Part shown: one piece after another, positions 2,820-25,600 of the stretch
Layout: every line of letters starts with the position of its first letter
Position numbering within the stretch: position 1 is the stretch's first letter
NCBI GenBank assembly: GCA_036924285.1
Contig: JAYKYS010000004.1
Coordinates: 21,918,001-21,982,000 of the forward strand
Source: Asterella californica
Lineage: Eukaryota; Streptophyta; Marchantiopsida; Marchantiales; Aytoniaceae
Direction of reading: 5' to 3'
DNA length: 64,000 bases
Translations under genes and position numbers: made by a program
Notes under the pieces: model-generated
The model's input: the letters and a program-made list of their open reading frames with translations, nothing else
Databases searched by the model: none
Told to the model about the DNA's origin: nothing

Positions 2820-3860
2820 GTGTGTCCGCGAGATTCTATCACCACGGAGTTCTCGGGAGGTTCTGGTGGGGACTTCTCGGACAGTGGGTATACACGGAGT
2901 GAGGTGAGGTACCGACTACCTACACCATTGCCGTTGGTTGTTCCAGAGGACGAGTCAGACGTAGACAACATGTTTTCTGATGGTGAGTTTAGTGTCACCA
3001 CATCGTTATTGTGAGACATGGACGAGATCTATGAGGTCACGAAGAGACCTCGACGTTACTCGGGTGCGGTGGGTACCATCGAGCTGGATGACTTCATCCA
3101 AGAGTTCGACAGTTGGTGCGATCTGCAGCAGATGTGGAACCCACAACTGTTTACACCTTTCATGACGTGGAAGGGTTTGTTTCAGCACTTGGAGGGACCG
3201 CCGATGGACGATTACCATGAGTTCATGCGAGACTATGGTGTTGAGATTGAGTTGTGGAGACAACCTTGGTCTCTCAACTACGTTTCTATCACTACAAGTA
3301 TAGTTTCAGGAGGCTTAGCACCTACTAGTTCGGGTGCCAGTAGCAGTGATACATCCACAGGTGACGGAGTACCTACTACCAGCGGTGCGTTCACTAGTAG
3401 TGGAGCAAGTGGTAGTGCAAGCGAGATACCATCAGGGTTTAACCCTGTGGTTCAGTTCTTCCACTGTTTGAGGAAGAACTATCAGGGTGTGCGAACCGAC
3501 AAGTTGAAGAGTCTGCAGGAGTTCCAGCGGAGGACTGGAGAGAGCCTACGCGAGGTGTTTACTCGCATGAGGCGGTTAATCAACGTTATCCAAGGGGTGA
3601 CGGAAGCACAAGCAGTCCAGTTCTGGTATGGGATACTAGACAGAGAGCTGCGTAGGAGAGTCAGAGATGCCACTCTCTTTAGAGACACCACTCCGACATT
3701 GGTGGTTGTCTTTGGTTTGGTTGAGTGGATAGAGCTCAACATGGTAGAGGAGAGGGTGGTGAGTGCTGGGTTCAGCAGGGACTCATCACATGGAGCGACC
3801 TCCTCTTCTCGAGGATCACAGGCTGTGCAACAGCGTGGTGGTGGTGGGGGTAAGGATCGT
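2820..3860 (+). pseudogene. TE2 gag, N-terminal part, interrupted by TE1
   Basis: This is the capsid-type gag region. The reading frame runs from about 2820, is broken by TGA at 3012-3014 (TE3 has TGG at the same place), and continues from the ATG at 3018 to 3860, where the TE1 LTR begins. The ORF from 3018 is 290 residues on paper, but its last ten residues are read from the TE1 LTR. A Ser/Thr/Gly-rich linker lies at about residues 100-145 of that ORF. It is followed by a retrotransposon gag-like helical region (KNYQGVRTDKLKSLQEF, then FWYGILDRELRRRV). The equivalent TE3 region continues straight on into zinc knuckles, so TE2 gag resumes at 12569 on the other side of TE1. Confidence 0.75.
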
Positions 3861-5233
3861 TGTCGCGCCATTTGGCGGCTACATGCTTGACTTGTACTCC
3901 GACGCTTAGGTTTGATAGTTCTAGAAGTTAGCTCATATTACTTCTAGTCCTTTATGTATATGTTTGACACCTTAGCAAACGGTGTTAACACTATTTTGAG
4001 TCCTAGTAGGCTGATAGTATGTTAGTTATCTTGTTCAAGCATTTGTGCGCTTGTGCAAGTGACTTCTTACTTGTCTATGACGTTCAATGTACATAACTTA
4101 GGGTTTCCATGCTGATAGGGGTTTGAGCTCATGGGTTGTACTTACTTGTCGCCCATGCACGCTTTCTAGCTGATTTAAGTTATTTTTCAGGACTACGTGT
4201 CATTTTAGGTAGTTTAAGTTTTACGCTGGCACTCTAGGGGGCTTGACGTGGTAGCCTATGAGTGCAGATAAGTTACCAGGTAGTTTAAGGCACAAAAGGA
4301 CAGTCAAGTGGAGCTATGAACTCCCATTGGTCCATTTTTGTCTTTTGTAAAACTCTAAGTTTAGAAACAGAGCTCTAGAGTGGAGTTCGAGCATTTGGTG
4401 AGGGATCTTCGAAATCTGAGAACACAGGAGGAGAGAGCTCGTCGTGCCAAGCACTGTCAGTGAAATTTTTGCTCGATTTGGATCAATAAACAAGGAGTTA
4501 TGCCCAATTGAAGTTCGGATTGTGTCAAAACTGCATCACTTTTGTTGATTTTGGGGTTTTCGGTGCCAATTGCAGCAGAATTGAGGAAATCACTTCAAAA
4601 CTTCGTGGTTGCGTTCACTGTCAGGAGGGCTACGACTGTCCAAAAAGTTTTGAATCATTTGAGTGACTGAGTAATTCAGGGCGGCCGCTGAAGCAGAGGG
4701 GGTCTGAAAAGCTCTTAATCTAGAGCAACGACTTTAGAGAAGGAGATCTGGAGTTCTACAAACAATCAGGAGTCCCAACTTCACAGGGATGTTCAGCATC
4801 CTGTAGACTTCAAATACTGTGAGAAGATTTGAAATTCATCGAGCCAATTCTCTGTTCTATGTCTGAATAGCTGTCTAGGTACCAGAAATTGCCATAATTC
4901 TCTTATTCAGAACTTTTCTGTCAACATCTCGGTGCTAGAATTCAATCTTAGGCTGAAACTTCGTGTGTGTGTTCAGTAGTGCCTCATTTACATGTAGGGG
5001 AAGTTTAGAAGTCTAAACCTTCATAGTTTTCCTCTCTTTGAGTGTCAAAGTTCACCGCTTAAGCCTATTACTACAAGTGAGATCTAAATTTCGCTTTTTG
5101 AGCATATCAGAGGATCCTACACTCCTGTGTGAGTGTTTATAGCTCCTGTTGTGACCTGAAAGCCAACCTCTGGAGTAAACAACCACAGCCAGAAGCCCGG
5201 CGCTTTCCTAGGTAGACGGATTATACTCCGACA
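3861..5233 (+). repeat. TE1 5' LTR
   Basis: A direct repeat of 11196-12568, same length, starting TG and ending CA. Differences seen by eye include CAAACGG/CATACGG, GCGTTCAC/GCGTACAC, TCTTAGG/TCTCAGG and two changes at the extreme 3' end. It should hold the promoter and polyadenylation signals of TE1. No initiator-tRNA-type primer-binding site (TGGTATCAGAGC) follows. The nearest TGG lies at 5247, so the primer tRNA is unassigned. Confidence 0.95.
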
Positions 5234-5311
5234 TACTCTCTTTTTTTGGTGAACTCGACGTGAAACACCTAGGGTGGGAGTTTTCTTGAGAGTGTTACAG
5301 GATCAGATATC

Positions 5312-7684
5312 ATGGCCAACCAAGGATCATCAAGTGGAGGTGCTGCTGCTGCTCAGCAACCTGCTCAGTTGGATGCTGCTACGATGAAGATGTTCCAAGC
5401 TTTTCACATGTTTATGCAGCAGCAGCAGAGCACAGAGAGGAAGGAGGTGTTAGCAACCAAGGCGTTGCAATCTGTGGTGCATCAGATGGATCAGTTCAAG
5501 GGGACAGATATTTCCAAGTACGTGCGATACTATGCTAGGGAGATGGAGGTGAACAAGGTACCTGAGAAGGAGATGGTGGAGAACTTTGAACTTGCTGTTG
5601 TCCCTGAGATTCGTGGGCGTGTGAAGGAGCTCAAGCAGCAGCAAGGACAGAGTTGGGAGAGCTTTATGCGAGCTTTGAAGGAGGAGTACTACACTGAAGA
5701 TTCAGAGAGGGTGACCAAGAGAACGTTCTTGGAGTGGGTGGTTAAACCTAACAAAGGTTTGTCTGTAAATGAGTTGTTAAGGGAGTTTGATCGTCAATAT
5801 GCTCAGCTTTCTAGGACAGAGAAGCTTACACTAGAGGTTGAGAAGACCGAGCTTTTCCTACAAGCAGCGGACGTGACTATTCAGGAGAAGCTTGAGCTGT
5901 TGCTGGAAGACAAGAGTGAGGAGAGAGGATTGAAGACTGACTGGAAGGAGGTTGAAGAGGCTGTTTCTTTGCTGACCAAGAGACAGAGAAAAAGGGACAA
6001 GGTGGTGGTAAGTGAAGCAGCACCTCTGATAATTCATGTCAAGCAGTTGCCTACTAAGCCTGCTTTGGTAATTGCTAGAGAGGAAGACTCACCGCTTGAT
6101 GAGTTGATTAAGGATATGAAGGAGCTTAAGCTTAAGCTCACTAGGTTAGAAGAGAAGGAGCAGAATGTACAGCCTGCTATGCAGAGACCTCAGATGAGAG
6201 AAGGCTTTGTTCATCGTTGTATATGGTGTGATAGCCTAGACCATGTAAGAAGAGATTGTGGAGAGTTTTCAGATGCATTGAGGAAGGTTCTGATCTTCTT
6301 CAAAGATGGTAAGATCCATTTGAGAGAGACTGGGATGATGTTGGGAACCAACTTTGGCAAGGGTGGTATGAAGAGGCTTGTGAATGAGATATCAGCATCA
6401 CATGCTGTTTCTCTTGTGAATGCTGCTACCTGTGGAGTGAAAGTGGAGATGGAAAGAGAGAAAGGGACTACTGGGTTGTGGTCTGATGTAGTGCGGTCCG
6501 TAGCTAGAACAGAGCTAGACAAGGATGTGCTACGAAGGGTTGGCAACTCAATTCGAGAAGCTACAGGATGGAATGATCCTGTGGATACTATGTCAGTGCA
6601 TGCTTATGTTGCAAGAAGTCAGCATGAAACTGTACTAGAAGAAAAACGCAAGAGGGAGGATGCAGGTGAGGCTTCTACAGCCAAACGACCTACTACAAGG
6701 AGTGAAAGGACTAGACCAGAGGCAAGACATGAGACAACACCTACTCGGGAGGAGACTATGGAGGATCTACCATCTACAACACCAAAGGAGAAGGAGAGGA
6801 GCAAGGAGAAGGGTAAGATGCCTGCATACAAACTTCAGTCTGACATTGAGATTGCTACAGACTTGAAGCAGGTGTTAGAGAATCGTATATTGAATGGGAA
6901 GGTTGAGTTTACCTTGGATGAGATTCTTGGGATTGCAAAGCGTGAGTTCCATGAGGTTATCATAGATATCATCAAGAGGAAACGTCAGATCTTGGGTGAA
7001 GCAGCTACGCTTAACGCTCTAGGGACCAAACTGTCGGAGGATGAGGAAGATGAGATTGCTGGTTATTGCTCTCAAGTATCAGAGGGGAGATCAGATCAGC
7101 ACGTGAGGTTTGAAGATGAGGTGGAAGCATCGCAGAAGAGCCATTACTCTCACAACCATTGGGCAAGAGCAACCACTGAGACCTTGGTGAAGTTGGGAGA
7201 TCTAGAGGAACCTGTGGTGGCATTGATTGATCACGGCTCAGAGATTAATCTGATGTCTAAGGAGCTGTACAAGCGTGGAAGGTGGCCCATAGACACCGAC
7301 CATGGATGGCTTATCCGTGCTGCCAACAACCAGAGGGGAGAGCTCTATGGTGCTTGTCCCAACATCAAGGTAACAGTGGGTGACATCAGTGATGTTCAGA
7401 GTTTCTTTGTGCAAGAGATGTCAACCTATCCTATCATTCTAGGGCAGCCTTACATTACTGCTGTTAGAATGGAGACACGAGTTATGGATGATGGTTCAGC
7501 CTATGCTAGGATACGTAGTAGAGACGGCAAAAGAGCTGTTCAGTTTTTGACCGTTGCTGCAGAACATGAGAGGAATCGTGATAGCTTGAGAGACCGTCCA
7601 CTACCTAAGATTACTCAGGAGTTTAGAGAGTCTAGGGGTTTTGGCAGAGTACCATTGAAGAGCGAGACTTCAACGGTACAGTAG
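5312..7684 (+). CDS. TE1 gag-protease polyprotein
   Basis: This 790-residue ORF encodes the structural polyprotein of TE1. A Gln-rich N-terminus leads into a capsid-type gag domain (about residues 40-230). A CCHC zinc knuckle is visible at residues 303-316 (C-X2-C-X4-H-X4-C). A charged linker precedes a domain from residue 503 (MPAYKLQSDIE to IDIIKRKRQ) of a kind found in gypsy polyproteins of plants and fungi. A retropepsin-like segment follows, ALIDHGSEINLM, with the presumed catalytic Asp at residue 640. The expected D-T/S-G triad reads D-H-G here, which is unusual. The ATG at 5312 lies 79 bases after the 5' LTR. The ORF ends at TAG 7682-7684, 40 bases after the slippery heptamer at which translation is expected to slip into pol. 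Confidence 0.9.
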   Translation: MANQGSSSGGAAAAQQPAQLDAATMKMFQAFHMFMQQQQSTERKEVLATKALQSVVHQMDQFKGTDISKYVRYYAREMEVNKVPEKEMVENFELAVVPEIRGRVKELKQQQGQSWESFMRALKEEYYTEDSERVTKRTFLEWVVKPNKGLSVNELLREFDRQYAQLSRTEKLTLEVEKTELFLQAADVTIQEKLELLLEDKSEERGLKTDWKEVEEAVSLLTKRQRKRDKVVVSEAAPLIIHVKQLPTKPALVIAREEDSPLDELIKDMKELKLKLTRLEEKEQNVQPAMQRPQMREGFVHRCIWCDSLDHVRRDCGEFSDALRKVLIFFKDGKIHLRETGMMLGTNFGKGGMKRLVNEISASHAVSLVNAATCGVKVEMEREKGTTGLWSDVVRSVARTELDKDVLRRVGNSIREATGWNDPVDTMSVHAYVARSQHETVLEEKRKREDAGEASTAKRPTTRSERTRPEARHETTPTREETMEDLPSTTPKEKERSKEKGKMPAYKLQSDIEIATDLKQVLENRILNGKVEFTLDEILGIAKREFHEVIIDIIKRKRQILGEAATLNALGTKLSEDEEDEIAGYCSQVSEGRSDQHVRFEDEVEASQKSHYSHNHWARATTETLVKLGDLEEPVVALIDHGSEINLMSKELYKRGRWPIDTDHGWLIRAANNQRGELYGACPNIKVTVGDISDVQSFFVQEMSTYPIILGQPYITAVRMETRVMDDGSAYARIRSRDGKRAVQFLTVAAEHERNRDSLRDRPLPKITQEFRESRGFGRVPLKSETSTVQ

Positions 7685-7699
7685 AGATAGGATTCTCGC
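7636..7699 (+). promoter_or_regulatory. Predicted -1 programmed ribosomal frameshift signal with H-type pseudoknot
   Basis: The slippery heptamer G GGT TTT (7636-7642) is in the gag frame. The -1 frame, which is the pol frame, has a TAG at 7633-7635 and is open from 7636 onward. After a 6-nt spacer (7643-7648), stem 1 pairs 7649-7653 and 7655-7660 with 7675-7679 and 7668-7673: 11 base pairs with one A/C mismatch. The loop bases GCGAGA (7662-7667) are exactly complementary to TCTCGC (7694-7699), giving a 6-bp stem 2 with a 1-nt first loop and a 14-nt last loop. This matches the general form of viral -1 frameshift elements. It would make a gag-pol fusion at a fixed fraction. Function is inferred. 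Confidence 0.75.
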
Positions 7700-10068
7700 C
7701 TGATCCAGTAGAACATGAAGCTTTATCCTCTAGCTTCTTAGGATTGACTTCATGTGGATCAGTGTGTTATAGGAAGGTTGAGAATCTGAAGAGGTTTGAG
7801 AGGCAACATGTGAAGTATGTACAGCAGTCTTTGTGGGATAGTGGAGAGTTAGGAGGAGATGAATACATATCTGGAGTGTTTGAAGAGCAGTATTTGGTAG
7901 ATACTAAAGGGGAGTTGAAATCTATAGTAGAAAGTTCTATAGATGATGTAGATAGAGTGGTGAGAGTGAGCTCCAAGGAGCTTTATGATGTAATTGATAA
8001 GTTTATAGATCGGCAAGAGGTGTATGTGGAGACCAAGTACAAGTCAGTGGCAAAGAAAGTCAAACCAGTGGCTTTGCCTTTACCACTCGATTACAATCAG
8101 AAGATGGAGCAAGCTGCACGAGAGCCGACGCTCAGAGGACCGAGAAGAATTGGGCACCAGTTCACAGAAACAACACTGAAGGAGCTGAGGATTGGAGGTG
8201 ATGGATTTCTTACTGAGCAAGAGAAGAAGAGCTTCAGGGAGATGCTATCTAGGCATGGTAAGGCGTTTGCGTTTGAGTCACATGAAGTAGGATGTGTAGA
8301 TCCAAGTGTAGTTGCACCTATGGTAATCTTTACTATACCGCATGTGCCTTGGAATCTACGTCTTATCCCTGTACCTAGAGCTCATCTACCAAAGCTGATA
8401 GACTTGCTCCATGAGAGGATTAGGATGGGTATCTTGGAACCGTCTATAGCTCCCTACTCTAGCAGATGGTTTACTGTTCCGAAGAAGAGTGGAGCTTTGA
8501 GGTTTATCCAAGATATGCAGCCAGTTAACAAGGTGACTATCAGGAATATGGGTATAGGACCTATTGTAGACGAGTTTGCAGAGGCTTTTGCTGGTCGTGC
8601 TATCTATTCGATGGGAGACTTATATTCAGGTTATGATCAGTTTCAGTTATCCTCTGAGAGTAGAGACTTGACTACAATGAGGACACCTTTGGGGTTACTA
8701 AGGATGTGCACCTTGCCACAAGGTGCTACCAATTCTGTAGCGCATATGATGAATGGCATGAACAAAGTTTTGAGGGACTTCATTCCTGAAAAAACTATGC
8801 CATTCCTTGATGATGTGCCGATCAAAGGGTGTGCTGAGGAGGAGAAGAATGAGGTAAAAGATCAGAGGGGGTGCCGTAAGTTTGTAGCAGATCACATAGC
8901 TGATGGTGATAAGATACTGAGTCGACTGGAGGAGGTTCATTTGACTTTATCAGGAGCCAAGTCTGTGTTTGGAGTACAAGAGGTGTTAATAGTGGGGCAC
9001 CTGTGTGGATCTTATGGTCGGAAACCTTGTCCAAACAAGGTTGACGCCATTCAAAGGATGAAGGAGACGTGTGGATCGGTTACTGAGGTGAGAAGATTTC
9101 TAGGTGCATGTGTGTTTTATCATATATGGATTCCACACTTTGCACATGTAGCAGATCCGTTGTACAAGTTGCTGAGGAAGGGGCAAAGATTTCAGTGGCA
9201 AGAGGAGCAAAGCGAGTCTATGAGGAAGTTGAAAGATCTTTTGGCTTCACCACCAACTCTACGGAAGGTAACATATGAGTTGGGCAGATCTGTTATCCTT
9301 ACTGTTGATACTAGTCCTATTGGCATTGGATGGGCTGTAGGACAAGACGATGAGGATGGAAATAGATATGTGGTGCATTTTGGAGCTAAGGTGTTAAGTT
9401 CACGGCAGAGAGACTACCCTCAGGTCAAGAGAGAGCTATGGGGAGTAGTTACTGCGATGAAGAGTGATAAGGAATACTTGATAGGAGCACCTGTGGTTGT
9501 GGAGACAGATTGTTTACCTCTTTTGGGAATGATCACTAGCTGTACAACTCCAGATATTGCTATGTTGAGGTGGATAGCATATATCAAGTCCTTGAACCTA
9601 GAGTTTAGACATATTGCAGGAAAAGACAATCCTGTGGCAGATATGTTATCAAGGGCTAGGTATTACGATGAGAAAGAAATGATAAATGACCAGGAGGATG
9701 TGGGAATAGAGTTCTATTCTAGTGCTCTTGCTAGAAGAGATAGAAGCTGTTTTGCAGCCTCGTTGGAGTTATTTGAGGAAACTATGTATGATGGCGAGTG
9801 GTTGGATCTTGGACGCTATTTGAGTTCACTGGAAAGGCAAGAAGGCTCGTCTGATGCAGATTTCAAGAGGATCCGTAGAATAGCTTATGGTTACTTTTTA
9901 CATGGAGGACATCTATGGAAGCGCCCTAAGCTACAAGGAGGTATACCACAGCGGGTGGTACGTGACCTGGAATTGCAGCAGAAGCTGATCAAGGAGTTCC
10001 ATGAGAGTCTATGGGCCGGTCATAGAGGAGTTTGGGCTACATTTGCCAAGATGAAGGAAAGGTATTGA
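7636..10068 (+). CDS. TE1 pol: reverse transcriptase, RNase H and N-terminal integrase zinc finger
   Basis: The -1 frame relative to gag, open from 7636; the first start-like codon is a TTG at 7744, so frameshift entry is more likely than independent initiation. Counting from 7744, RT motif A reads YSMGDLYSGYDQF (about residues 280-295) and the catalytic box is FLDD with aspartates 356-357. RNase H follows, with the first Asp in LTVDTSPIGIGW and a second acidic site in VETDCLPL, ending near DMLSRARY. The integrase HHCC finger begins with FHESLWAGHRG. The ORF stops at TGA 10066-10068 just after KMKERY, between the His pair and the Cys pair. The same frame resumes immediately, so this is a point nonsense mutation, probably from a Trp codon. 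Confidence 0.88.
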   Translation, partial: GFWQSTIEERDFNGTVEIGFSPDPVEHEALSSSFLGLTSCGSVCYRKVENLKRFERQHVKYVQQSLWDSGELGGDEYISGVFEEQYLVDTKGELKSIVESSIDDVDRVVRVSSKELYDVIDKFIDRQEVYVETKYKSVAKKVKPVALPLPLDYNQKMEQAAREPTLRGPRRIGHQFTETTLKELRIGGDGFLTEQEKKSFREMLSRHGKAFAFESHEVGCVDPSVVAPMVIFTIPHVPWNLRLIPVPRAHLPKLIDLLHERIRMGILEPSIAPYSSRWFTVPKKSGALRFIQDMQPVNKVTIRNMGIGPIVDEFAEAFAGRAIYSMGDLYSGYDQFQLSSESRDLTTMRTPLGLLRMCTLPQGATNSVAHMMNGMNKVLRDFIPEKTMPFLDDVPIKGCAEEEKNEVKDQRGCRKFVADHIADGDKILSRLEEVHLTLSGAKSVFGVQEVLIVGHLCGSYGRKPCPNKVDAIQRMKETCGSVTEVRRFLGACVFYHIWIPHFAHVADPLYKLLRKGQRFQWQEEQSESMRKLKDLLASPPTLRKVTYELGRSVILTVDTSPIGIGWAVGQDDEDGNRYVVHFGAKVLSSRQRDYPQVKRELWGVVTAMKSDKEYLIGAPVVVETDCLPLLGMITSCTTPDIAMLRWIAYIKSLNLEFRHIAGKDNPVADMLSRARYYDEKEMINDQEDVGIEFYSSALARRDRSCFAASLELFEETMYDGEWLDLGRYLSSLERQEGSSDADFKRIRRIAYGYFLHGGHLWKRPKLQGGIPQRVVRDLELQQKLIKEFHESLWAGHRGVWATFAKMKERY

Positions 10069-11148
10069 TGGAAGGGTATGTATAAGGATGTAGTGCAGTT
10101 TGTTTCATCATGTATACCTTGCCAGATTTATTCCAACGTACGTCATCGTGATGGATTGCATCCTACTTATCCTTTAGCCATTCATTATAAATGGGTAGTT
10201 GATATGGTAACTATGCCATTTGGACTTGGACAAATGAGGTATCTAGTCTTGGCTAGAGAAGATCTATCTAACCAAGTCGAAGGCCGTGCTCTGAGGACGA
10301 AGACCACTGCTAGTGTCTGCCGCTTTCTACTTGAAGATGTTATTTGTAGGTATGGGTGTGTGGGAAAGATCACTGCAGATAGGGGTGAGCTGGATGCACA
10401 AGAAGCAGTTGAGTTCTTCAAGCGATTGGGAATCAAGTTGGCGTTAACCACTGCTTACAATCCTGAAGGGAATGGCAAGAGCGAACGAGGTCATCCGCCA
10501 ATCATCAAAACTTTGGTCAAAGCTTGCAGGGGTAAGATCCGTGAATGGCCTAGACTACTACCATTTGCTTTGTGGGCAGATCGTACAACTCATAGTACCG
10601 TTACAGGTTACATGCCAGCAGAGTTGATACTAGGACAAAAACCTGTGATGCCGATTGAGGAGGTTGTGCCTACTTGGAATGTTTTGCCATGGGAAGATGG
10701 TAGAAGTACGGAGGATCTTCTTGCGTTAAGGATCCAGCAGTTAGAACGAAGACCTGAGGATGTTGCCAAAGCTGTGGAAAGATTAAAGACTGCTAGAGAG
10801 AGAAACAAAGGCAGATTTGATAGAACGCATAGATTACGACCCAAACCAGTTAAGGAAGGTGATTGGGTGTTAGTCTATGATAGTAGTCTTGATAATCAGC
10901 ATAGCGCTATCAAAAAGTTTTCCAAGAGATGGTTCGGACCTTATGTGGTGTTAGAAGTTTATGATAATGCCACATATTCTTTGAGAGAGTTAGATGGTGC
11001 AGTGCTCAAGATACCAGTCGCAGGGAAGAGAATCAAGCTCTTTAGAAGGAGAGCGGAGGATCAGAATATTGCAGAGCTTACTGAAGATGAAGCTGAAGAC
11101 TCAATGGAGGTTGAAGATGAGTTTGAAGGTGAAGCTGAAGAGTCTTGA
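10069..11148 (+). pseudogene. TE1 pol: integrase core and C-terminal domain, separated by one nonsense codon
   Basis: In frame with the preceding ORF; the first Met is at 10078. The integrase finger is completed by CIPCQIY. The catalytic core shows the first Asp in KWVVDMVTMP, the second in ITADRGELD and the Glu in GNGKSERGH, 34 residues after the second Asp. A C-terminal GPY/F-type module (RWFGPYVVLEVYDNATY) is followed by a highly acidic tail. Without readthrough of the TGA at 10066 this half is not translated from the gag-pol RNA, so the copy is probably not autonomous. The acidic end terminates 47 bases before the 3' LTR. Confidence 0.85.
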
Positions 11149-11184
11149 TCTGGGTCTGGCACATACCGGAGGATGTGCAGGTTC

Positions 11185-11195
11185 AGAGGGGTGGA
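11185..11195 (+). promoter_or_regulatory. TE1 polypurine tract
   Basis: A purine-rich run, AGAGGGGTGGA, ends exactly at the base before the 3' LTR. This is the expected primer site for plus-strand synthesis. A related tract (AGAAAGAGTAGA) precedes the LTR-like start at 59296, in the TE1-like remnant. Confidence 0.7.
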
Positions 11196-12568
11196 TGTCG
11201 CGCCATTTGGCGGCTACATGCTTGACTTGTACTCCGACGCTTAGGTTTGATAGTTCTAGAAGTTAGCTCATATTACTTCTAGTCCTTTATGTATATGTTT
11301 GACACCTTAGCATACGGTGTTAACACTATTTTGAGTCCTAGTAGGCTGATAGTATGTTAGTTATCTTGTTCAAGCATTTGTGCGCTTGTGCAAGTGACTT
11401 CTTACTTGTCTATGACGTTCAATGTACATAACTTAGGGTTTCCATGCTGATAGGGGTTTGAGCTCATGGGTTGTACTTACTTGTCGCCCATGCACGCTTT
11501 CTAGCTGATTTAAGTTATTTTTCAGGACTACGTGTCATTTTAGGTAGTTTAAGTTTTACGCTGGCACTCTAGGGGGCTTGACGTGGTAGCCTATGAGTGC
11601 AGATAAGTTACCAGGTAGTTTAAGGCACAAAAGGACAGTCAAGTGGAGCTATGAACTCCCATTGGTCCATTTTTGTCTTTTGTAAAACTCTAAGTTTAGA
11701 AACAGAGCTCTAGAGTGGAGTTCGAGCATTTGGTGAGGGATCTTCGAAATCTGAGAACACAGGAGGAGAGAGCTCGTCGTGCCAAGCACTGTCAGTGAAA
11801 TTTTTGCTCGATTTGGATCAATAAACAAGGAGTTATGCCCAATTGAAGTTCGGATTGTGTCAAAACTGCATCACTTTTGTTGATTTTGGGGTTTTCGGTG
11901 CCAATTGCAGCAGAATTGAGGAAATCACTTCAAAACTTCGTGGTTGCGTACACTGTCAGGAGGGCTACGACTGTCCAAAAAGTTTTGAATCATTTGAGTG
12001 ACTGAGTAATTCAGGGCGGCCGCTGAAGCAGAGGGGGTCTGAAAAGCTCTTAATCTAGAGCAACGACTTTAGAGAAGGAGATCTGGAGTTCTACAAACAA
12101 TCAGGAGTCCCAACTTCACAGGGATGTTCAGCATCCTGTAGACTTCAAATACTGTGAGAAGATTTGAAATTCATCGAGCCAATTCTCTGTTCTATGTCTG
12201 AATAGCTGTCTAGGTACCAGAAATTGCCATAATTCTCTTATTCAGAACTTTTCTGTCAACATCTCGGTGCTAGAATTCAATCTCAGGCTGAAACTTCGTG
12301 TGTGTGTTCAGTAGTGCCTCATTTACATGTAGGGGAAGTTTAGAAGTCTAAACCTTCATAGTTTTCCTCTCTTTGTGTGTCAAAGTTCACCGCTTAAGCC
12401 TATTACTACAAGTGAGATCTAAATTTTGCTTTTTGAGCATATCAGAGGATCCTACACTCCTGTGTGAGTGTTTATAGCTCCTGTTGTGACCTGAAAGCCA
12501 ACCTCTTGAGTAAACAACCACAGCCAGAAGCCCGGCGCTTTCCTAGGTAGACGGATTACACTTCGACA
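11196..12568 (+). repeat. TE1 3' LTR
   Basis: A 1,373-bp direct repeat of 3861-5233. The outer flank is TCGT, the same four bases that precede the 5' LTR, followed by TE2 gag sequence that continues the interrupted reading. Confidence 0.95.
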
Positions 12569-13670
12569 TCGTGCTGAACACTCACGAGGATGTGGTTACC
12601 TCTGGAGGATCTTATGGGCAGAAGCCCATGCCGTCCTTCTCTAGTCAGCAGCAAGCAGATCCTTGCTGGACGTGTGATGGTCCTCGGATTGTCCACAAAG
12701 GAGAGATAGTTATGAGACATCTGAGACGTCTCAAGCGGTGCCTAGGTAGTGTGAGCACTGCGGGTGATCAGGTCACAGTAGTGATCGTTGTTTTGATCTC
12801 CATCCCGAGCTACGGCAAGGGAAGGCTGATCGTGGATGAGGCGGAGGAGCTCAGAGAGACCGTGGTGGTCGAGCTGGAGATAGAGGTCCAGCACCTGAGA
12901 GAAGATCAGTCGGTCCACCGCCTGCTACGACGTCAAAAGCAAGTATGACTGCTCGGATTGAGCAGTTGGAGCAGAGGATAGCTAGCATGACTATGGTTCA
13001 ACGGAGATCTGGTGGAACAGAAGCTTCCACGTCTTATGGAGGAGAAGGAGGTGACTTCGACTTCATGGCTGGTGTGGCGCAGATTGAGACATCTGCGGCA
13101 GTGACTCGGAGTGCAGTACATATCTCTGAGCCACGAGGTGCGTCAGTGGAGTTGGATTCATAACGCGGAGAGGCTGGTAGACAGGTCAGGCTTCCTCAAT
13201 CGTTCACTCTATTGGAGGCATTGCGGACCACTTCTATGGTTCCTAAACGGCCTACCGATGGTGTAGTGGAGTTAGAGATACGACATCCAAGCGTGGGAGT
13301 AATGCAAGTCAACCCTCGACATATGTGGATGCGACGTCGAACTCCATGTTGGGGGCGGCTACAACAGTTTTGCAAGTCCCACTATTTTCAGCCACGGATA
13401 TGAAGGCATTGGGAGTCAGCTTGACTCTAGTGTTCCAGATGGCAACCACGCTCAGTGAGAGCGAGGATGTGGTTACCTCTAGTGCTGAGGTGGTTCAGCG
13501 AGAGGTGGTAGATGTGTCTATGGAGTCGAAGATCAGGACAACTACTAGTGGTACTTGGCAAGAGGCGGCGGATACTTGACACTATACTTGGCGGATACTT
13601 GGATACTTGACAAGCGGCGGCTGCCAGGCTAGATGAGTTACCAGCTAGACCGGCAATTGACCGTGCTAGA
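12569..13670 (+). pseudogene. TE2 gag, C-terminal part with degraded zinc knuckles
   Basis: This resumes TE2 gag after TE1. The first knuckle begins CWTCDGP as in TE3, but its second half is lost through a roughly 10-bp deletion that shifts the frame. The second knuckle, intact in TE3 as CEHCGRPGHSSDRC, is only a damaged trace here. A short coiled segment (ARIEQLEQRIASM) starts at about 12,951. Near 13,565-13,615 there is an extra stretch of repeated GGATACTTG units absent from TE3. The basic, Val/Arg-rich translation at about 12.7-12.95 kb is a frameshifted reading and not a separate gene. Confidence 0.7.
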
Positions 13671-14102
13671 TTGGCACCAGGTGTGGTGTTGTTGGACAAT
13701 AGAAGTGGTATCTTTTGTTTGGTGGCACCTTCAGGGAAGGTGTATCGACCGCAGAAAGTGTTGTTAGACTCTGGAGCTCAACCGTTGATGTTGAGGAAGG
13801 CAACGTGTATCGATTTGGGTCTGAGGAAGTCCGAAGTGGAGAGATGTCCATTTCAGCTACAGACATCTCTAGGGGGATAAGGAGGTACAACTCTACACAT
13901 GACACGCGAGTTGCTGACGGTGAGAGTTAGACAAGATCATCTCACGGATGGCTCCATGGTGAGGACCAAGGCTATCGTTACGGCCGCGGAGTCTTATGAT
14001 GTATTGGTTGGAGGTGCTGTATTATACCCTATGGGGTTCGTGATCGACTATTAGACGAAAACAGCATCTTACAAATCGAGTCGGCAGTCCGATGAGGGAC
14101 GA
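13671..14102 (+). pseudogene. TE2 aspartic protease and linker
   Basis: A retropepsin-like domain. After GIFCLVAPSGKVYRPQ comes VLLDSGAQPLML with the D-S-G catalytic triad. Downstream, YDVLVGGAVLYPMGF resembles the C-terminal flap and ILG region of retroviral-type proteases. The frame is interrupted by TAA at about 13,878-13,880 (TE3 reads TCA) and by a TAG soon after GFVIDY at about 14,052. It is otherwise in frame with the methyltransferase that follows, so protease and methyltransferase were originally one polyprotein. Confidence 0.75.
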
Positions 14103-15687
14103 GTGAGCCGCTTACCAGTGCGATTCAGTGCTAGAGTTGGGACAACGGAGCTTACATCCGAGACGATGGCATCCGTTGCAGGGTTCAGTTCGGTCATCAC
14201 TTGGTCTGACGAGTTGTTAGAGGACAATGTCCATGCAGAGGATACTCCAGTCTTTGAGGAGGTGGAGGACAAGCTTAACATGTCTACGTTAGTACCATCT
14301 GCCTTGGATGTTCCACTTTGGAGTTCAAGTGGAGATTTGCAGCAGTATGCTGATCGGTTGGTGCAGCAGGTTTGGAGTGAAGCTTTTGTACCGTCAGTAC
14401 AAGAACATCGGGGTGTTCCTGTTACTGACCTTGTGATCTTAACACCGTTGGATACGACTCCCATTGCATGGCAGTATCCAAAGGAGGGTGTGTGTGTGCT
14501 AGAGCTATTTGGAGAGATCAACACAGATTTGGCTGCGGTATTACAAGCAGGCATACAAGTACAGCGATACTTGTATGTGGAGAGAGATGAGGTCGCAAGA
14601 CGCGTCTCATTGCATCACATGACACGTTTGGTGCAGAGATATCATGAGTTGTTGTCTATATCAGCTGTAGAGGATACTAGCAAGCATTACCGTCAGATAT
14701 TTCGCTGCTAGGGTGCAAAATCTCACGTTTGTTGACATCATTCACTTGGTGATAGCTGGGTGGCCATGTCAAGGTCACACGCGTGCTGGGAGGGATCAGG
14801 GTTTACATGATCCACGATCTAGGATGTTCTGAGAGATGTTACGGATCTTACGACATCTCCATATGCATCAAGTGGATTCTCCAACGTACATCTTGGAGAA
14901 CGTTTCTTTGTTGGGTGATGCTTGCGCACATATGATGACGAGTGTGCACCAAGTGCGATCATGGATCGGACCGGCAGTGTTGTTAGATGCAGCGAGGGTC
15001 GGATCTCGTGCACATCGTCCACGGTTGTGGTGGACAAACTTGTTACTGAAGGAGGTACTCAAGCGCGCACACGATGCAGTGAGATGACCAGCACATCTCA
15101 CAGTTGATGGCATCTTGGATGCAGGACAACGATCTCAAGTAGTGAGAGTCGTCGATAGATCACCCATGGTTGTGGTGAACCTAGTGGGACGACCTATGAC
15201 AGTGTTACCCACTTTGGTGAGCTTTCTAACGTCACATGCTTACAAAGATGGAGGACCTGGGCTTGTGTGGGATGCTCGGTTACAACAGTTGGTGGAGCTC
15301 AATGTCAATGAGAGACAGAGAGCGATGGGTTTTCTTACGGATACGACGACAGTAGCTTCGGTGTCGGAGGCTTCACGTCGTCAAGTGTTGGGTCAAGCAA
15401 TGCACTTGAACTGCTTGACATGGATTGTTAGTCTTGGATTGGCTGAGCAGCGTCAGATGCGATCGACGGGTGTTACTGCTCAGACACTCTTGAGCTCTTT
15501 GTCTATCGAATCGGTGGAGATAAAGGCTGGGGGCAAGGCATGTGGAGTTCGTCATACTTGGACATCATGGGATGTTATAGGAGAGAGTGTGAAGCTTGCA
15601 GCTAGAACTGCAGAAGTTTTTCACACAGTAGCGGTGGAGGTTCTTGGTGATGAGCAGAAGGAAACTGCTCCAGAGGCTGCAAGATAG
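14103..15687 (+). pseudogene. C5-cytosine DNA methyltransferase domain of TE2 (DNMT3/DRM-like)
   Basis: This domain would transfer a methyl group from AdoMet to cytosine C5 in DNA. Motif I (AdoMet binding) is VLELFGEIN followed by LQAGIQVQRYLYVERDE (14,496-14,590). Motif IV is LVIAGWPCQGHTRAG, with the catalytic Cys codon at 14767-14769. Motif VI is the ENV triplet at 14896-14904. Motif VIII is GSRAHRPRLWWTN (15,001-15,039), closest in my memory to the AHRARYFWGN of DNMT3. Motif IX/X appears as NVNERQRAMGF (15,301-15,333) and VLGQAMHLNCLTW (15,385-15,423). Breaks are a 1-bp shift near 14,690-14,710, TGA at 14830-14832, TGA at 15085-15087 and TAG at 15685-15687. The acidic N-terminal linker (about 14.10-14.45 kb) has no recognised fold. 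This copy is dead. Motif order and spacing leave little doubt about the family. Confidence 0.88.
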
Positions 15688-16215
15688 CAGTCAACGACTT
15701 CGTCTTCTACCTCTAGCATGATGACAGAGAATACTTGGGAGCCGGAGATTGGACCCAAGTTTATAGAAGACGAGAGACGAAGAGTTCAGAGATTCCTGAA
15801 GAGCTACAGGAATTGTTTTGCTTTTAGTATGAAGGATTTGGATACCTTGAAGGGACCTTGAAGGGACTTGGTATACGGATCGACTTGGCTAATGACACGG
15901 CAATCTTCTAACGTCCTTATAGATACAGTGACATGGAGAGAACCTTGATCCAGAGTAGGACTCAAGACTTGGTGAAAGCTAGGTTGGTGGTGATGTCGCA
16001 TGGAGAGTATGCATCTGCCACAGTTATGCCAGCAAAGAAGGATATGTATGGCAACTACACGGATAGGCGCATGTGTGGAGACTATCATCTTATCAATCGA
16101 TAGACAAAGTCCGATAAGTATACCATGCCGACACCTGAGGAGATCTTTGATGCAGTAGGGCATGTGAAAGTCTTCAGTACTTTGGATCTTCGAGCAGGGT
16201 ATCATCAAGTCTGTG
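15688..16215 (+). pseudogene. TE2 reverse transcriptase, N-terminal fragment
   Basis: Directly after the methyltransferase comes a Ser/Thr linker, then a gypsy-style pre-RT segment (EDERRRVQRFLKSYRNCFAFSM). An 11-bp tandem duplication (15844-15854 and 15855-15865) shifts the frame. RT resumes with RYSDMERTLIQSR, RRMCGDYHLIN and motif A FSTLDLRAGYHQ, which holds the first catalytic Asp. There are stops at about 15,909 and 16,102. Similarity ends at about 16,215, before the YxDD box. Allowing for the 11-bp duplication, RT and methyltransferase share one frame, so they were parts of one polyprotein. Confidence 0.8.
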
Positions 16216-22604: not shown

Positions 22605-25600
22605 CTACTCTCGGAGTTTCTTCAGCACGGAGTGCGCTGTGCAGTAAGCAAGGGACTGGACAGTGATCATCGGATTCACCCCAGAGGCAGTGGGAAACAC
22701 ACTGGAATCAGCGAGGAACAAGCGTTCGGCCTCCCACGTCTCGCCCGTGCCGTCCACAACGCTGGACCTGGGGTCAGCGCCCATTCTGCACGTGCTCATC
22801 TGGTGCGCGGAGCTCACGGGATAGCGCAGATTGTTGCTTCGCATACATTTGTAGGCAGTCGATTTCACTCGCTCAAGGTACTCGTCAAGTTGCGCCGCTG
22901 TAGACGCAGAAACGTTGAGGCTCTCGCCATCGACGTGGTGAGTTCCAAGCTCAGTAGCCCCAGCCGCAACCAACGCTCGCATACCAACCTCGAGGGTCTC
23001 CACCATGTTCGACGCATCCTCAGCCTGCACGGTATACTCGATTTTCGTGGTCTTGCCGTTCCTGTCTAGCATGACTCTGCCACTCCCTCTGTCTCGACAG
23101 ATGGCCAGGACTTGAGCAGTCCGCTTGTACTTCCGCATCATTTCCTTGTGTTTGGAACCCGAGACCCACGGCATGACTCCCCCATAGACGCCGGGATGAA
23201 GGATCGGGACCTCGAGGATAGACCCGTAAGCTGAAGTTTCCGAGTTCCAGTTCGCTGTCTGCTTGGAAACTGCAGTCATGATCGGCCCGTCGTAACTCGT
23301 CCCCTTGGCTCCCTTATCCTCGGGGAAATAGCCCCATGCCATGATGCAAGGGTGGCAGTGGAAGTTCCGACCGATGTTCGGATTCTGGAATCCGCTGAGC
23401 AGTAACAAGGGAGGAGTGTTGAGGGCTCCACAAGCGACCACAGTGGCGCGAGCTTCTACGTAAACGAGGATATCTCCGATCTCCGCCACGACACCCACAG
23501 CTTCACGCTTCCTGTCCGCGGTTCTCGAACAGGAGCTGACACGGTGGAGTACCGCTTTGGCTTGACAGTTGGAGAGAATGAGAGCGCCATTCTTGACAGC
23601 GTCAACGAGCCAGGTCTCGGAGGTGGACTGCTTCTCACCTTTGGAACAGCCAAAATTGCAGAAGCCACAAGAATGTTGCCCCAGAACGTTTCTCGGAATG
23701 TCGCCAATGTCTAGCCCGAGCTCCTCACACCCTTTCCGAAGAACGGCATTCTGAAAACTCTCCTGCTCGCAGTTCGAGTGGACTCCGCCCCTCGAGCAGA
23801 CCGCATCCATCGCTTGTTGATACTCTTCGGTTGCAAAAAATGGAAGCCGGAGCTCTTCGGCCCACTCTCGTCGAACATGCTTAGGCGTTTGGAACGATGC
23901 AGACCAGTTTACGGCAGAGCCCCCGCCGACTGTTCGGCCAGCCAACAGATTCAAACCCCCACAATCCGTGGCGAGGATTCCCCCGCCTTGATAGAGTTGG
24001 TCGTAAGCAGGATATTCAAGCAGAGTGAGGTCGCCTCTGGCGTAATATTGGCCTTGTTCGAGAACCAGAACCTTCTGACCTCCAGTGGCAAGCACGCCAG
24101 CTGCGACACCTCCTCCAGAGCCCGAGCCCAGAACGACGGCATCGCAGCTAATACCGATAACTGTCTTTCCTGATTCATTCTGCTTCGAAAGAGATCGGAG
24201 GTGGGATATATCATCCAGGAGAGTAAATCCTCCGTCTTCTAGGAAAGCTCGCAGGGCATCTGCGCCTGCCGATTCCCCATCCATTACTTTCCCGTCGAGC
24301 GGCCTCGCCGTGGGCACGTTCTCTGACTTCGCTAGCTCAGGTGCTGGACCACTGTAGCCGATGGCATCCCAGCAGCGATTATGTCCGTCTGCACCCACCT
24401 GTAAAGTGAACATCGACCTCGTCACTAGACGTAGACGTCAATTCTAGAGGTAGTATATCAGTTCTCTGCGGTGCACACCGTCAGAGATACAGGAAACGAC
24501 TTCGAGAAACGAGAAATATATGGAGCAGTCATCATCTCACAGCGTACACATTGCAAAACCCCGTGAGTTCTCTCTAGCATGCATATGCTAGGCGCTCTCT
24601 TATGCGACCCAGAATCATTGTCCAGAGCTGCAGCGACATGATGAGACTTCACGAATAGACACGAATTAAATTTCTTGGACGTCCTCCTTGGTGACTTTCC
24701 CAGAACGACGAAGATCCTAAGCTCCAATAATTGCTACTGCACGGGATGGTTACGTAAGAAAAGCAGAATTTCAGAATCTTGCAGTCACTACTGACAGTTC
24801 TACCAACGGAGCTAAACTCCTTGACATGCGTGGTACCAAGCTCAGAGCGTTGGAATCACTGTCCAAAGCGTACCTTGGTGTAGTAGCAGAGCATGGTGAA
24901 GCCTTTGCACAACTTGAAGATCTCTCGGAGCTTCGCGATGGGGCTGTGCGACCAGTAACGCAGTACCCTCTCGCGTTTTGAACGGGGTATATCGGCAAAA
25001 CGGTTGACGAAAGGGAAGCTGGAGCTCAGACATAGATGGCCGCACATGATAAGTGTTCCCAGATACGAGGAGAGCAGCCATAGACCCGCCCCCGCCAACA
25101 GCAATTGCAGGGCCTTCAGTCGATGTGCGAAGAGCCCGGCAACCTGAAATTACACTCGTACACATCGAACGCACAGACATCAGTCTCATTATACACAGGC
25201 CTAGAAACGCACTCAACAAAAAATATCTCCACAGACGACGTCAGTATAGCGTATTCTCATTACGGTACTTGTCCTGACGTCTAATTGCAGAGGCAAGAAA
25301 TTTAGTTTCCCTCGACTGATAACACGCATAGTGCAGAACCCCGTCTGTATTTTCTACCAGGTCTCTGAAGAAACTGAGCTATGACAATCTTAATCTTCAG
25401 GAAACTCTGGACCTTCTTTCGGCGTGTGAGAATTCGAAGGTCCGCCGAGTGACGTAAAATTGACGTGACCTGAAGTATCGTAGGAGCTCATACTCCCATT
25501 CTCAGGCATGCAAACGAATTGCATCTAATGGACCAGAAACTCATATCGCAGTTGTGACAAGTCATGATGCAAATTCATCGAGACTCCCGCGCTGCACAGA

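What the first reader, a model, noticed from the sequence alone, without database searches (positions are those of the whole stretch)
14103..15687. A retrotransposon that carries its own C5-cytosine DNA methyltransferase between protease and reverse transcriptase
The sequence shows motifs I, IV (catalytic Pro-Cys at 14764-14769), VI (ENV), VIII (AHRPRLWW) and IX/X in canonical order, flanked on one side by an aspartic protease and on the other by a gypsy-type RT, on one strand. Retrotransposon-encoded DNMTs have been reported in dinoflagellates (copia-type) and charophyte algae (gypsy-type). If this genome is a land plant, it extends that phenomenon. The DNMT3-like motif VIII suggests a de novo type enzyme, which could methylate the element's own cDNA or alter host silencing.
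Basis: partly seen in the sequence, partly recalled or inferred. Interest (0 to 1): 0.92.

Follow-up and report, generated by a model that had tools for sequence, protein, structure and literature searches.

The report
Liverwort retrotransposon carrying a DNA methyltransferase
A jumping gene present in many copies in a liverwort genome carries its own DNA-marking enzyme, of the type hosts use to silence such elements; the copy in this window is broken, but some other copies still read open.

Summary
Window 12568-16207 is a decayed, truncated copy of a Ty3/Gypsy element in which a DNMT3-type cytosine methyltransferase follows the protease and precedes reverse transcriptase.

Other copies read LTR, gag, protease, DNMT3, stop, RT, RNase H, integrase, PHD finger, LTR. 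The stop after the DNMT has the leaky context CAR-YYA in 20 of 20 copies (UAG in 19), and 16 of 20 stay open at least 84 codons beyond it. So the methyltransferase is probably made with Gag, and RT-integrase by readthrough.

The host is a liverwort. Relatives occur in Marchantia, Sphagnum, Closterium, Klebsormidium and chlorophytes. Trees put DNMT-bearing elements in one lineage, apart from this plant's own DNMT3. Passages in held papers report such elements from algae and dinoflagellates and deny them to land plants; my searches found none describing them in bryophytes. Enzyme activity, packaging and target are inferred, not shown.

The parts
12568..13569 (+). partial gag / zinc-knuckle and linker part of the element copy (5' truncated, no LTR)
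   Evidence: blastn alignment to 20 of 20 fetched copies begins at 12568-12603; 89-91% identity
13600..14053 (+). aspartic protease segment, DSG at 13767-13775
   Evidence: read; Pfam gag-asp_proteas E 0.012, below cut-off; the same segment lies in an open frame in L011
14055..15684 (+). N-terminal linker plus DNMT3-type C5-cytosine methyltransferase, frame broken by one frameshift and two stops
   Evidence: PF00145 E 2.2e-7; 39 other scored copies; in open copy L011 the same region gives PF00145 1.3e-9
14496..14528 (+). methyltransferase motif I (LELFGEINT here)
   Evidence: motif I of P0001 at residues 974-981
14764..14772 (+). motif IV, catalytic Pro-Cys-Gln
   Evidence: aligned with DNMT3A Pro-Cys-Asn
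14896..14904 (+). motif VI, Glu-Asn-Val
15010..15033 (+). motif VIII, AHRPRLWW
15385..15411 (+). motif X region, VLGQAMHLN
   Evidence: aligned weakly with the DNMT3A end segment
15685..15693 (+). UAG stop at the end of the methyltransferase frame followed by CAG-UCA (UAG-CAR-YYA, type I readthrough context)
   Evidence: same stop context in the window and 20 of 20 copies, UAA instead of UAG in one; 16 of 20 copies stay open at least 84 codons beyond it in the same frame
15712..16207 (+). start of the reverse-transcriptase frame, truncated
   Evidence: alignment to the 20 copies ends at 16207; RVT_1 E 0.14 locally, 4.5e-31 in L025

Best explanation
A Ty3/Gypsy LTR retrotransposon family of a liverwort that carries a catalytic-looking DNMT3-type cytosine methyltransferase. 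SHOWN by sequence: the order LTR, gag, protease, methyltransferase, stop, RT, RNase H, integrase, PHD finger, LTR (pieced together from several copies); repeated copies; open frames; the leaky-stop context; selective constraint. INFERRED: ribosomes mostly stop at the UAG and release Gag-protease-methyltransferase, and a minority read through to add RT-integrase-PHD. The protease cuts the products, and the methyltransferase rides in the particle in Gag-like amounts. There it methylates cytosines in the finished double-stranded cDNA before or during integration, so that the new copy enters the genome already marked like resident DNA. The PHD finger, a histone-tail reader type, would bias where integrase inserts. 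Identity and architecture: about 0.97. Readthrough: about 0.75. cDNA as the main substrate: about 0.4.
For: Methyltransferase identity. Copies and open frames. LTR pairs 282-289 bp, K2P 0.007-0.029, in 4 of the 6 extended copies. PHD finger E 9.8e-11 in L012. Leaky-stop context 20 of 20 copies, frame open beyond it. Passages of PMC2754532 give CAR YYA as essential for readthrough of the TMV stop and 32% readthrough of the TMV context in plants. Constraint: pN/pS 0.41 over the methyltransferase in 8 copies against 0.69 expected from the mutation spectrum; RT 0.41 against 0.65. Identity to Marchantia P0004: methyltransferase 76.5%, gag 72.0%, protease 60.2%. Catalytic residues: 114 of 128 family members with the three columns present keep the catalytic Cys, the Glu of ENV and the second Arg of motif VIII.
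Against: No activity, protein or RNA data. In the sections of PMC5890265 that I read, the Klebsormidium retrotransposon enzyme gave no methylation in yeast, which the authors call inconclusive. An ATG lies 33 bases after the stop in all 21 sequences, so re-initiation is possible. The junction is well conserved but not extreme (rank 101 of 2122 windows). Codon positions after the stop, counted on window coordinates, do not show a freer third position (0.983, 0.968, 0.982), though the window copy is itself frameshifted there. No special RNA fold downstream in 20 copies. No matching 4-6 bp target duplications were seen beside the four LTR pairs. Relatives with the methyltransferase between RNase H and integrase (61 of 100) would make it with Pol, so a Gag-like dose cannot be essential to the whole lineage.
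Confidence: 0.5

Rival explanations
1. The methyltransferase acts on host chromatin or on the insertion site rather than on cDNA, marking or silencing surroundings (self-limitation or domestic peace with the host).
For: PHD finger beside integrase suggests chromatin contact. C-to-T type singletons are denser at CG (119 of 376 sites) and CHG (128 of 369) than at CHH (328 of 1490), so copies look methylated in the germ line.
Against: The host has its own DNMT3 and two DRM genes, which would mark copies anyway; the mutation pattern cannot tell the source.
Confidence: 0.25
2. The domain is a non-catalytic or RNA-directed part (nucleic-acid binding like DNMT3L, or RNA methylation) kept for packaging.
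For: Half of the algal relatives have Glu-Cys in place of the usual Pro-Cys in motif IV (50 Glu, 77 Pro of 144). The Klebsormidium enzyme was inactive in yeast (PMC5890265).
Against: The liverwort, Marchantia and Klebsormidium sequences in A1 keep Pro-Cys, ENV and the motif VIII arginines; catalytic Cys kept in 129 of 133 family members with a letter there.
Confidence: 0.15
3. The stop after the methyltransferase is a normal stop and the RT frame is made by re-initiation at the ATG 33 bases downstream, or from a separate or spliced RNA.
For: ATG at that place in all 21 sequences. Marchantia gene models P0007 and P0013 join DNMT to RT without the stop, as an intron would (my reading of the protein text, DNA not seen).
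Against: The nine-base context is the plant-virus leaky one, about 1 in 1500 by chance for uniform bases (arithmetic), and the frame is continuous in most copies.
Confidence: 0.2
4. A recent private capture of this liverwort's own DNMT3 gene.
For: The host has a DNMT3 gene (L041).
Against: Trees separate element methyltransferases (25 of 25 rows, 100/100) from plant DNMT3 including the host's (9 of 9 rows, 100/100). Rows were gathered by similarity to each query, which favours such grouping.
Confidence: 0.03

Closest known systems
KnitGypsy-Dnmt3 of Klebsormidium nitens (PMC5890265)
   Same: Gypsy element with a DNMT3-type methyltransferase; K. nitens protein P0050, probably a copy of it (not checked against the paper's own sequences), has the order methyltransferase, RT, RNase H, integrase and falls in the same DNMT and RT lineages.
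   Different: Land-plant host; stop codon between methyltransferase and RT, absent in P0050; PHD finger found, none in P0050, which is partial; ordinary direct LTRs, whereas the paper's figure legend describes DIRS-like repeats.
SymbioDIRS-Dnmt3 and SymbioLINE-Dnmt of dinoflagellates (PMC5890265)
   Same: Retrotransposons that carry a cytosine methyltransferase; the DIRS enzymes methylate CG de novo in yeast (section read).
   Different: DIRS and LINE elements, not Gypsy; described there as an independent acquisition.
Marchantia polymorpha proteins annotated as hypothetical (P0004 and others) and Sphagnum fallax P0020
   Same: Same family: 76.5% and 75.5% identity over the compared methyltransferase segment.
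   Different: Only gene models seen, no DNA. The P0020 model lacks the stretch with the catalytic Cys.
DNMT3A/DNMT3B
   Same: Best matches among solved structures (profile: DNMT3A 6.3e-24) and unrearranged motif order.
   Different: No ADD or PWWP neighbour found; the PHD finger sits after integrase instead.
Type I readthrough signal of TMV and relatives
   Same: UAG-CAR-YYA immediately (signal as given in PMC2754532 and PMC2194720 passages).
   Different: In a plant retrotransposon; no readthrough measured.

Membership tests
Ty3/Gypsy LTR retrotransposon | order protease, RT, RNase H, integrase | tested here: met
   L011, L012, L025 frames by Pfam; protease by motif DSG and alignment, weak in Pfam
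Ty3/Gypsy LTR retrotransposon | pair of direct LTRs | tested here: met
   282-289 bp pairs in 4 of 6 extended copies; one of the other two gave no pair, the other only a 72.6% match
Ty3/Gypsy LTR retrotransposon | target-site duplication and tRNA primer site | tested here: inconclusive
   no matching 4-6 bp flanks in four copies, LTR ends uncertain by a few bases; primer site printed but not typed
DNMT3 family | closest family among C5 methyltransferases | tested here: met
   57 PDB sequences listed: DNMT3A/B first, then DRM, bacterial enzymes, DNMT2; none named DNMT1, MET1 or chromomethylase
DNMT3 family | motifs I, IV, VI, VIII, X in unrearranged order | tested here: met
DNMT3 family | de novo methylation of DNA | not testable with these tools
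   needs an assay
DRM (rearranged) | motifs VI-X before I-IV | tested here: not met
   element order is I to X; the host's own DRMs (L042, L043) show the rearranged order
KnitGypsy-Dnmt3 lineage | same methyltransferase and RT clade | tested here: met
   P0050 inside both clades; that P0050 is the published element is inferred
KnitGypsy-Dnmt3 lineage | methyltransferase inside one Pol frame | tested here: not met
   stop at its end in 20 of 20 copies
KnitGypsy-Dnmt3 lineage | purifying selection on the methyltransferase | tested here: met
   pN/pS 0.41 against 0.69 expected, weaker than the paper's Ka/Ks below 0.2
Type I stop readthrough | UAG-CAR-YYA with the frame open beyond | tested here: met
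Type I stop readthrough | measured readthrough | not testable with these tools
   needs a reporter assay

The most novel reading that the evidence does not exclude
One capture of a DNMT3 by a Gypsy element before chlorophytes and streptophytes parted, carried mostly by descent into liverworts and peat mosses. In the PR-DNMT-RT branch the enzyme became a Gag-level particle component through a leaky stop, working with a PHD-guided integrase so that the element arrives in the genome already wearing the host's methylation mark. Horizontal transfer between algae and bryophytes is not excluded.
Probability: 0.25. Interest if true: 0.85.

Novelty: new variant of a known kind. Interest (0 to 1): 0.67.

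Why it matters
DNA methylation is a main plant weapon against retrotransposons, yet this family carries and conserves a de novo type methyltransferase. Finding it in liverworts, including Marchantia, puts it within reach of a genetic model plant, where the open question of why an element would methylate DNA can be tested. A dose controlled by a leaky stop and a PHD finger make concrete predictions about where and when it acts. It also suggests that the Klebsormidium case is one branch of a green-plant-wide lineage rather than a private capture.

Tried and rejected
Rejected: a structured readthrough stimulator. The window's own 120 bases after the stop fold better than shuffles (z -2.22, 5 of 200 as good), but 20 copies give z from -0.27 to -1.74, and in L011 the junction ranks 134 of 172 windows.

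Rejected: chance insertion; capture from this host's DNMT3; DRM or DNMT1/CMT origin.

Led nowhere: a scan of viral contigs matched 25 stretches, none confirmed. A genome-wide count of the stop context could not be made: the pattern search did not complete (14 tries). Structure prediction never started (queue full). A first pN/pS run held out-of-frame codons of L025 and is replaced. One search stopped on a script error; one search replaces it. My compared methyltransferase segment (P0001 residues 991-1312) starts after motif I (residue 974), so trees and identities leave motif I largely out. One search, meant to find papers citing PMC5890265, returned general bryophyte papers and no use.

Dropped rows: one search left out P0017, P0032, P0035, P0053 (too short) and sampled every second of the other methyltransferases. 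One search used 46 of those 90 rows. One search took every third of 61 RH-DNMT-IN elements. One search used 54 of 83 rows, leaving out near copies and long branches (P0054 among them). One search used 8 of 20 copies for the methyltransferase, 4 for gag-protease, 9 for RT, chosen because frames are open there; 34 of 36 RT pairs passed the length filter. The 20 copies were taken from the 39 others scored.

Full report
WHAT IS THERE. The stretch 14103-15687 holds a C5-cytosine methyltransferase: PF00145 at E 2.2e-7 on the frame ending at 15687, read with X at two in-frame stops. The upstream piece 14055-14711, which carries motif I, gives no Pfam hit alone. The frame is broken by one frameshift and two stops. 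Against 20 fetched copies the window aligns only over about 12568-13569 and 13600-16207, so gag is partial, RT is cut off, and LTRs are absent.

IT IS A FAMILY. A DNA search of the genome with 14055-15687 scored 40 places (the cap; 2792 first-look candidates, which is not a copy count). One is the window; the other 39 are 90-92% identical and 38 of them cover nearly the whole query. A PF00145 search scored 123 places of 1250 candidates; 16 lie in open frames of 1367-1381 codons. Several of the 123 are host genes.

ANATOMY FROM OTHER COPIES. In L011 one open frame of 1367 codons runs from gag (two CCHC knuckles) through protease (LLDSGAQ) to the methyltransferase (PF00145 1.3e-9), and a second of 779 codons holds RT, RNase H and integrase. 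In L012 a PHD finger (PF00628, 9.8e-11) follows integrase. Four of six extended copies have LTR pairs of 282-289 bp, 9.2-9.8 kb apart end to end, with K2P 0.007, 0.021, 0.029 and 0.029; the other two gave no pair or only a 72.6% match. With a recalled angiosperm rate of 7e-9 per site per year that is roughly 0.5-2 million years, uncalibrated for liverworts. No matching target duplications were seen. No single fetched copy was shown to be open throughout.

THE STOP AFTER THE METHYLTRANSFERASE. In 19 of 20 copies and the window the frame ends in UAG, in one in UAA. The next six bases fit CAR-YYA in 20 of 20, including two copies that differ from the common CAG-TCA (CAA-TCA and CAG-TTA). The frame stays open at least 84 codons beyond the stop in 16 of 20 (6 to 671). 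L028 has a 21-bp duplication that doubles the signal. Passages of PMC2754532 say CAR YYA is essential for TMV readthrough and report 32% for the TMV context in plants; passages of PMC2194720 say it is sufficient in TMV. In Marchantia the frames P0004, P0005 and P0009 and in metagenomes many more end at a like distance after the methyltransferase, but their DNA was not seen. Against: an ATG stands 33 bases downstream in all 21 sequences; conservation at the junction is high but not extreme (rank 101 of 2122); on window coordinates the codon positions after the stop show no freer third position (0.983, 0.968, 0.982), though the window copy is frameshifted there; no special RNA fold in 20 copies.

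WHICH METHYLTRANSFERASE. By one sequence DNMT3A is the best solved structure (6.4e-10); by profile DNMT3A 6.3e-24, DNMT3B 4.8e-21, then DRM 2.9e-13, HaeIII 4.9e-9, DNMT2 1e-7, with no entry named DNMT1, MET1 or chromomethylase among 57. Motif order is unrearranged, unlike the host's two DRM genes (L042, best PDB match DRM2 2.3e-106; L043). The host also has a DNMT3 gene with introns (L041).

THE HOST. The host DNMT3 is closest to Riccia fluitans (60%) and R. sorocarpa (58%) and groups with them at 100/100; the element is closest to Marchantia. So it is a liverwort, species unknown. In passages of PMC9985172 Lunularia is described as swollen by Ty3/Gypsy bursts; I could not test whether this is it.

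RELATIVES AND HISTORY. A search with the methyltransferase part returned 51 proteins: Marchantia (76% for the best), Sphagnum fallax 53% (a gapped gene model without the catalytic Cys), Klebsormidium nitens 42%, Cymbomonas 32%, Monoraphidium, and unnamed metagenome proteins; none named from a vascular plant, at limited sensitivity. A search with RT to integrase gave 728 hits, 120 listed, adding Closterium, Haematococcus and others (Tetstr read as Tetraselmis from memory). Of 165 proteins profiled, 100 have RT, integrase and methyltransferase: 39 with the methyltransferase before RT, 61 with it between RNase H and integrase; 80 of 100 have a PHD finger; 21 have RT and integrase without a detected methyltransferase. 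The sets were seeded by such elements, so these are not frequencies in nature. In the methyltransferase tree 25 of 25 element rows form one group, 100/100 (48 of 48). In the RT-RNase H-integrase tree the elements with methyltransferase form one group, 100/100, with four members lacking it and eight DNMT-less rows outside; the RNase H-DNMT-integrase layout is one nested group, 100/99 (same picture). This genome and Marchantia join at 100/99. The simplest reading is one capture, protease side first, with one later move. Transfer between hosts is not excluded.

CONSTRAINT. pN/pS is 0.41 for the methyltransferase (28 pairs of 8 copies), 0.36 for gag-protease (6 pairs of 4), 0.41 for RT-integrase (34 pairs of 9), against 0.69, 0.68 and 0.65 expected from the same mutation spectra (the spectra themselves bear selection). 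Some single pairs reach 1. Against Marchantia P0004 the methyltransferase is the best kept part of the first frame (76.5%; gag 72.0, protease 60.2), near RT (70-80%); against metagenome P0018 48.3, 26.1 and 39.4. Of 144 family members, 129 of 133 with a letter there keep the catalytic Cys, but 50 have Glu for Pro beside it.

MECHANISM. Inferred: the methyltransferase is made in Gag-like amounts, packaged, and marks the cDNA; the PHD finger helps to choose sites. De Mendoza and colleagues proposed cDNA self-methylation (abstract and discussion read). Copies carry more C-to-T singletons at CG (119 of 376) and CHG (128 of 369) than CHH (328 of 1490) sites, as methylated DNA would, whoever methylates it. 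Nothing here shows enzyme activity.

WHAT IS KNOWN. PMC5890265 (abstract, sections on Symbiodinium, yeast tests and discussion, passages elsewhere) describes KnitGypsy-Dnmt3 as an acquisition in the K. nitens lineage. [quoted passage not shown] PMC12344493 (passages) repeats streptophytes and dinoflagellates. Passages of PMC6317226, PMC6453930, PMC8616336 and PMC9516144 mention no bryophyte case. Searches listed no paper whose title or abstract start describes one. Subscription papers and preprints are not held, so the claim of absence is limited. The proteins themselves are public, annotated as hypothetical.

VERDICT. Real, multicopy, a land-plant branch of a known kind with a new layout: methyltransferase at the end of the Gag frame, leaky-stop context, PHD finger.

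Noticed in passing
window 3854-11488: A second, separate Gypsy element with LTR copies 99% identical over 300 bases and RT, RNase H and integrase frames 7636-10068 and 10069-11148 in one frame, split by a single stop. No methyltransferase seen in these two frames.
   Followed up: partly
window 22605-24437, minus strand: Host gene in a single open frame of 610 codons: GMC oxidoreductase, PF00732 8.9e-66 and PF05199 1.6e-21.
   Followed up: partly
relatives such as P0039, P0042, P0044, P0045: In 61 of 100 relatives the methyltransferase sits between RNase H and integrase instead of before RT; one nested group in the RT tree.
   Followed up: yes
family members: 50 of 144 have Glu-Cys instead of Pro-Cys in motif IV of the methyltransferase, which is odd for this enzyme class (the oddness is recalled).
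   Followed up: no
20 copies: Six copies share the same open length after the leaky stop (183 codons) and three share 84, so later stops recur at the same places: inherited or mutation hot spots.
   Followed up: no
L028, junction: A 21-bp tandem duplication doubles the stop and its CAR-YYA context.
   Followed up: no
P0036 and other hits: Some metagenome and Closterium polyproteins also list PF00098 (zinc knuckle) beside the methyltransferase; animal Cordylochernes Gypsy proteins are the nearest DNMT-less hits in the RT search.
   Followed up: no
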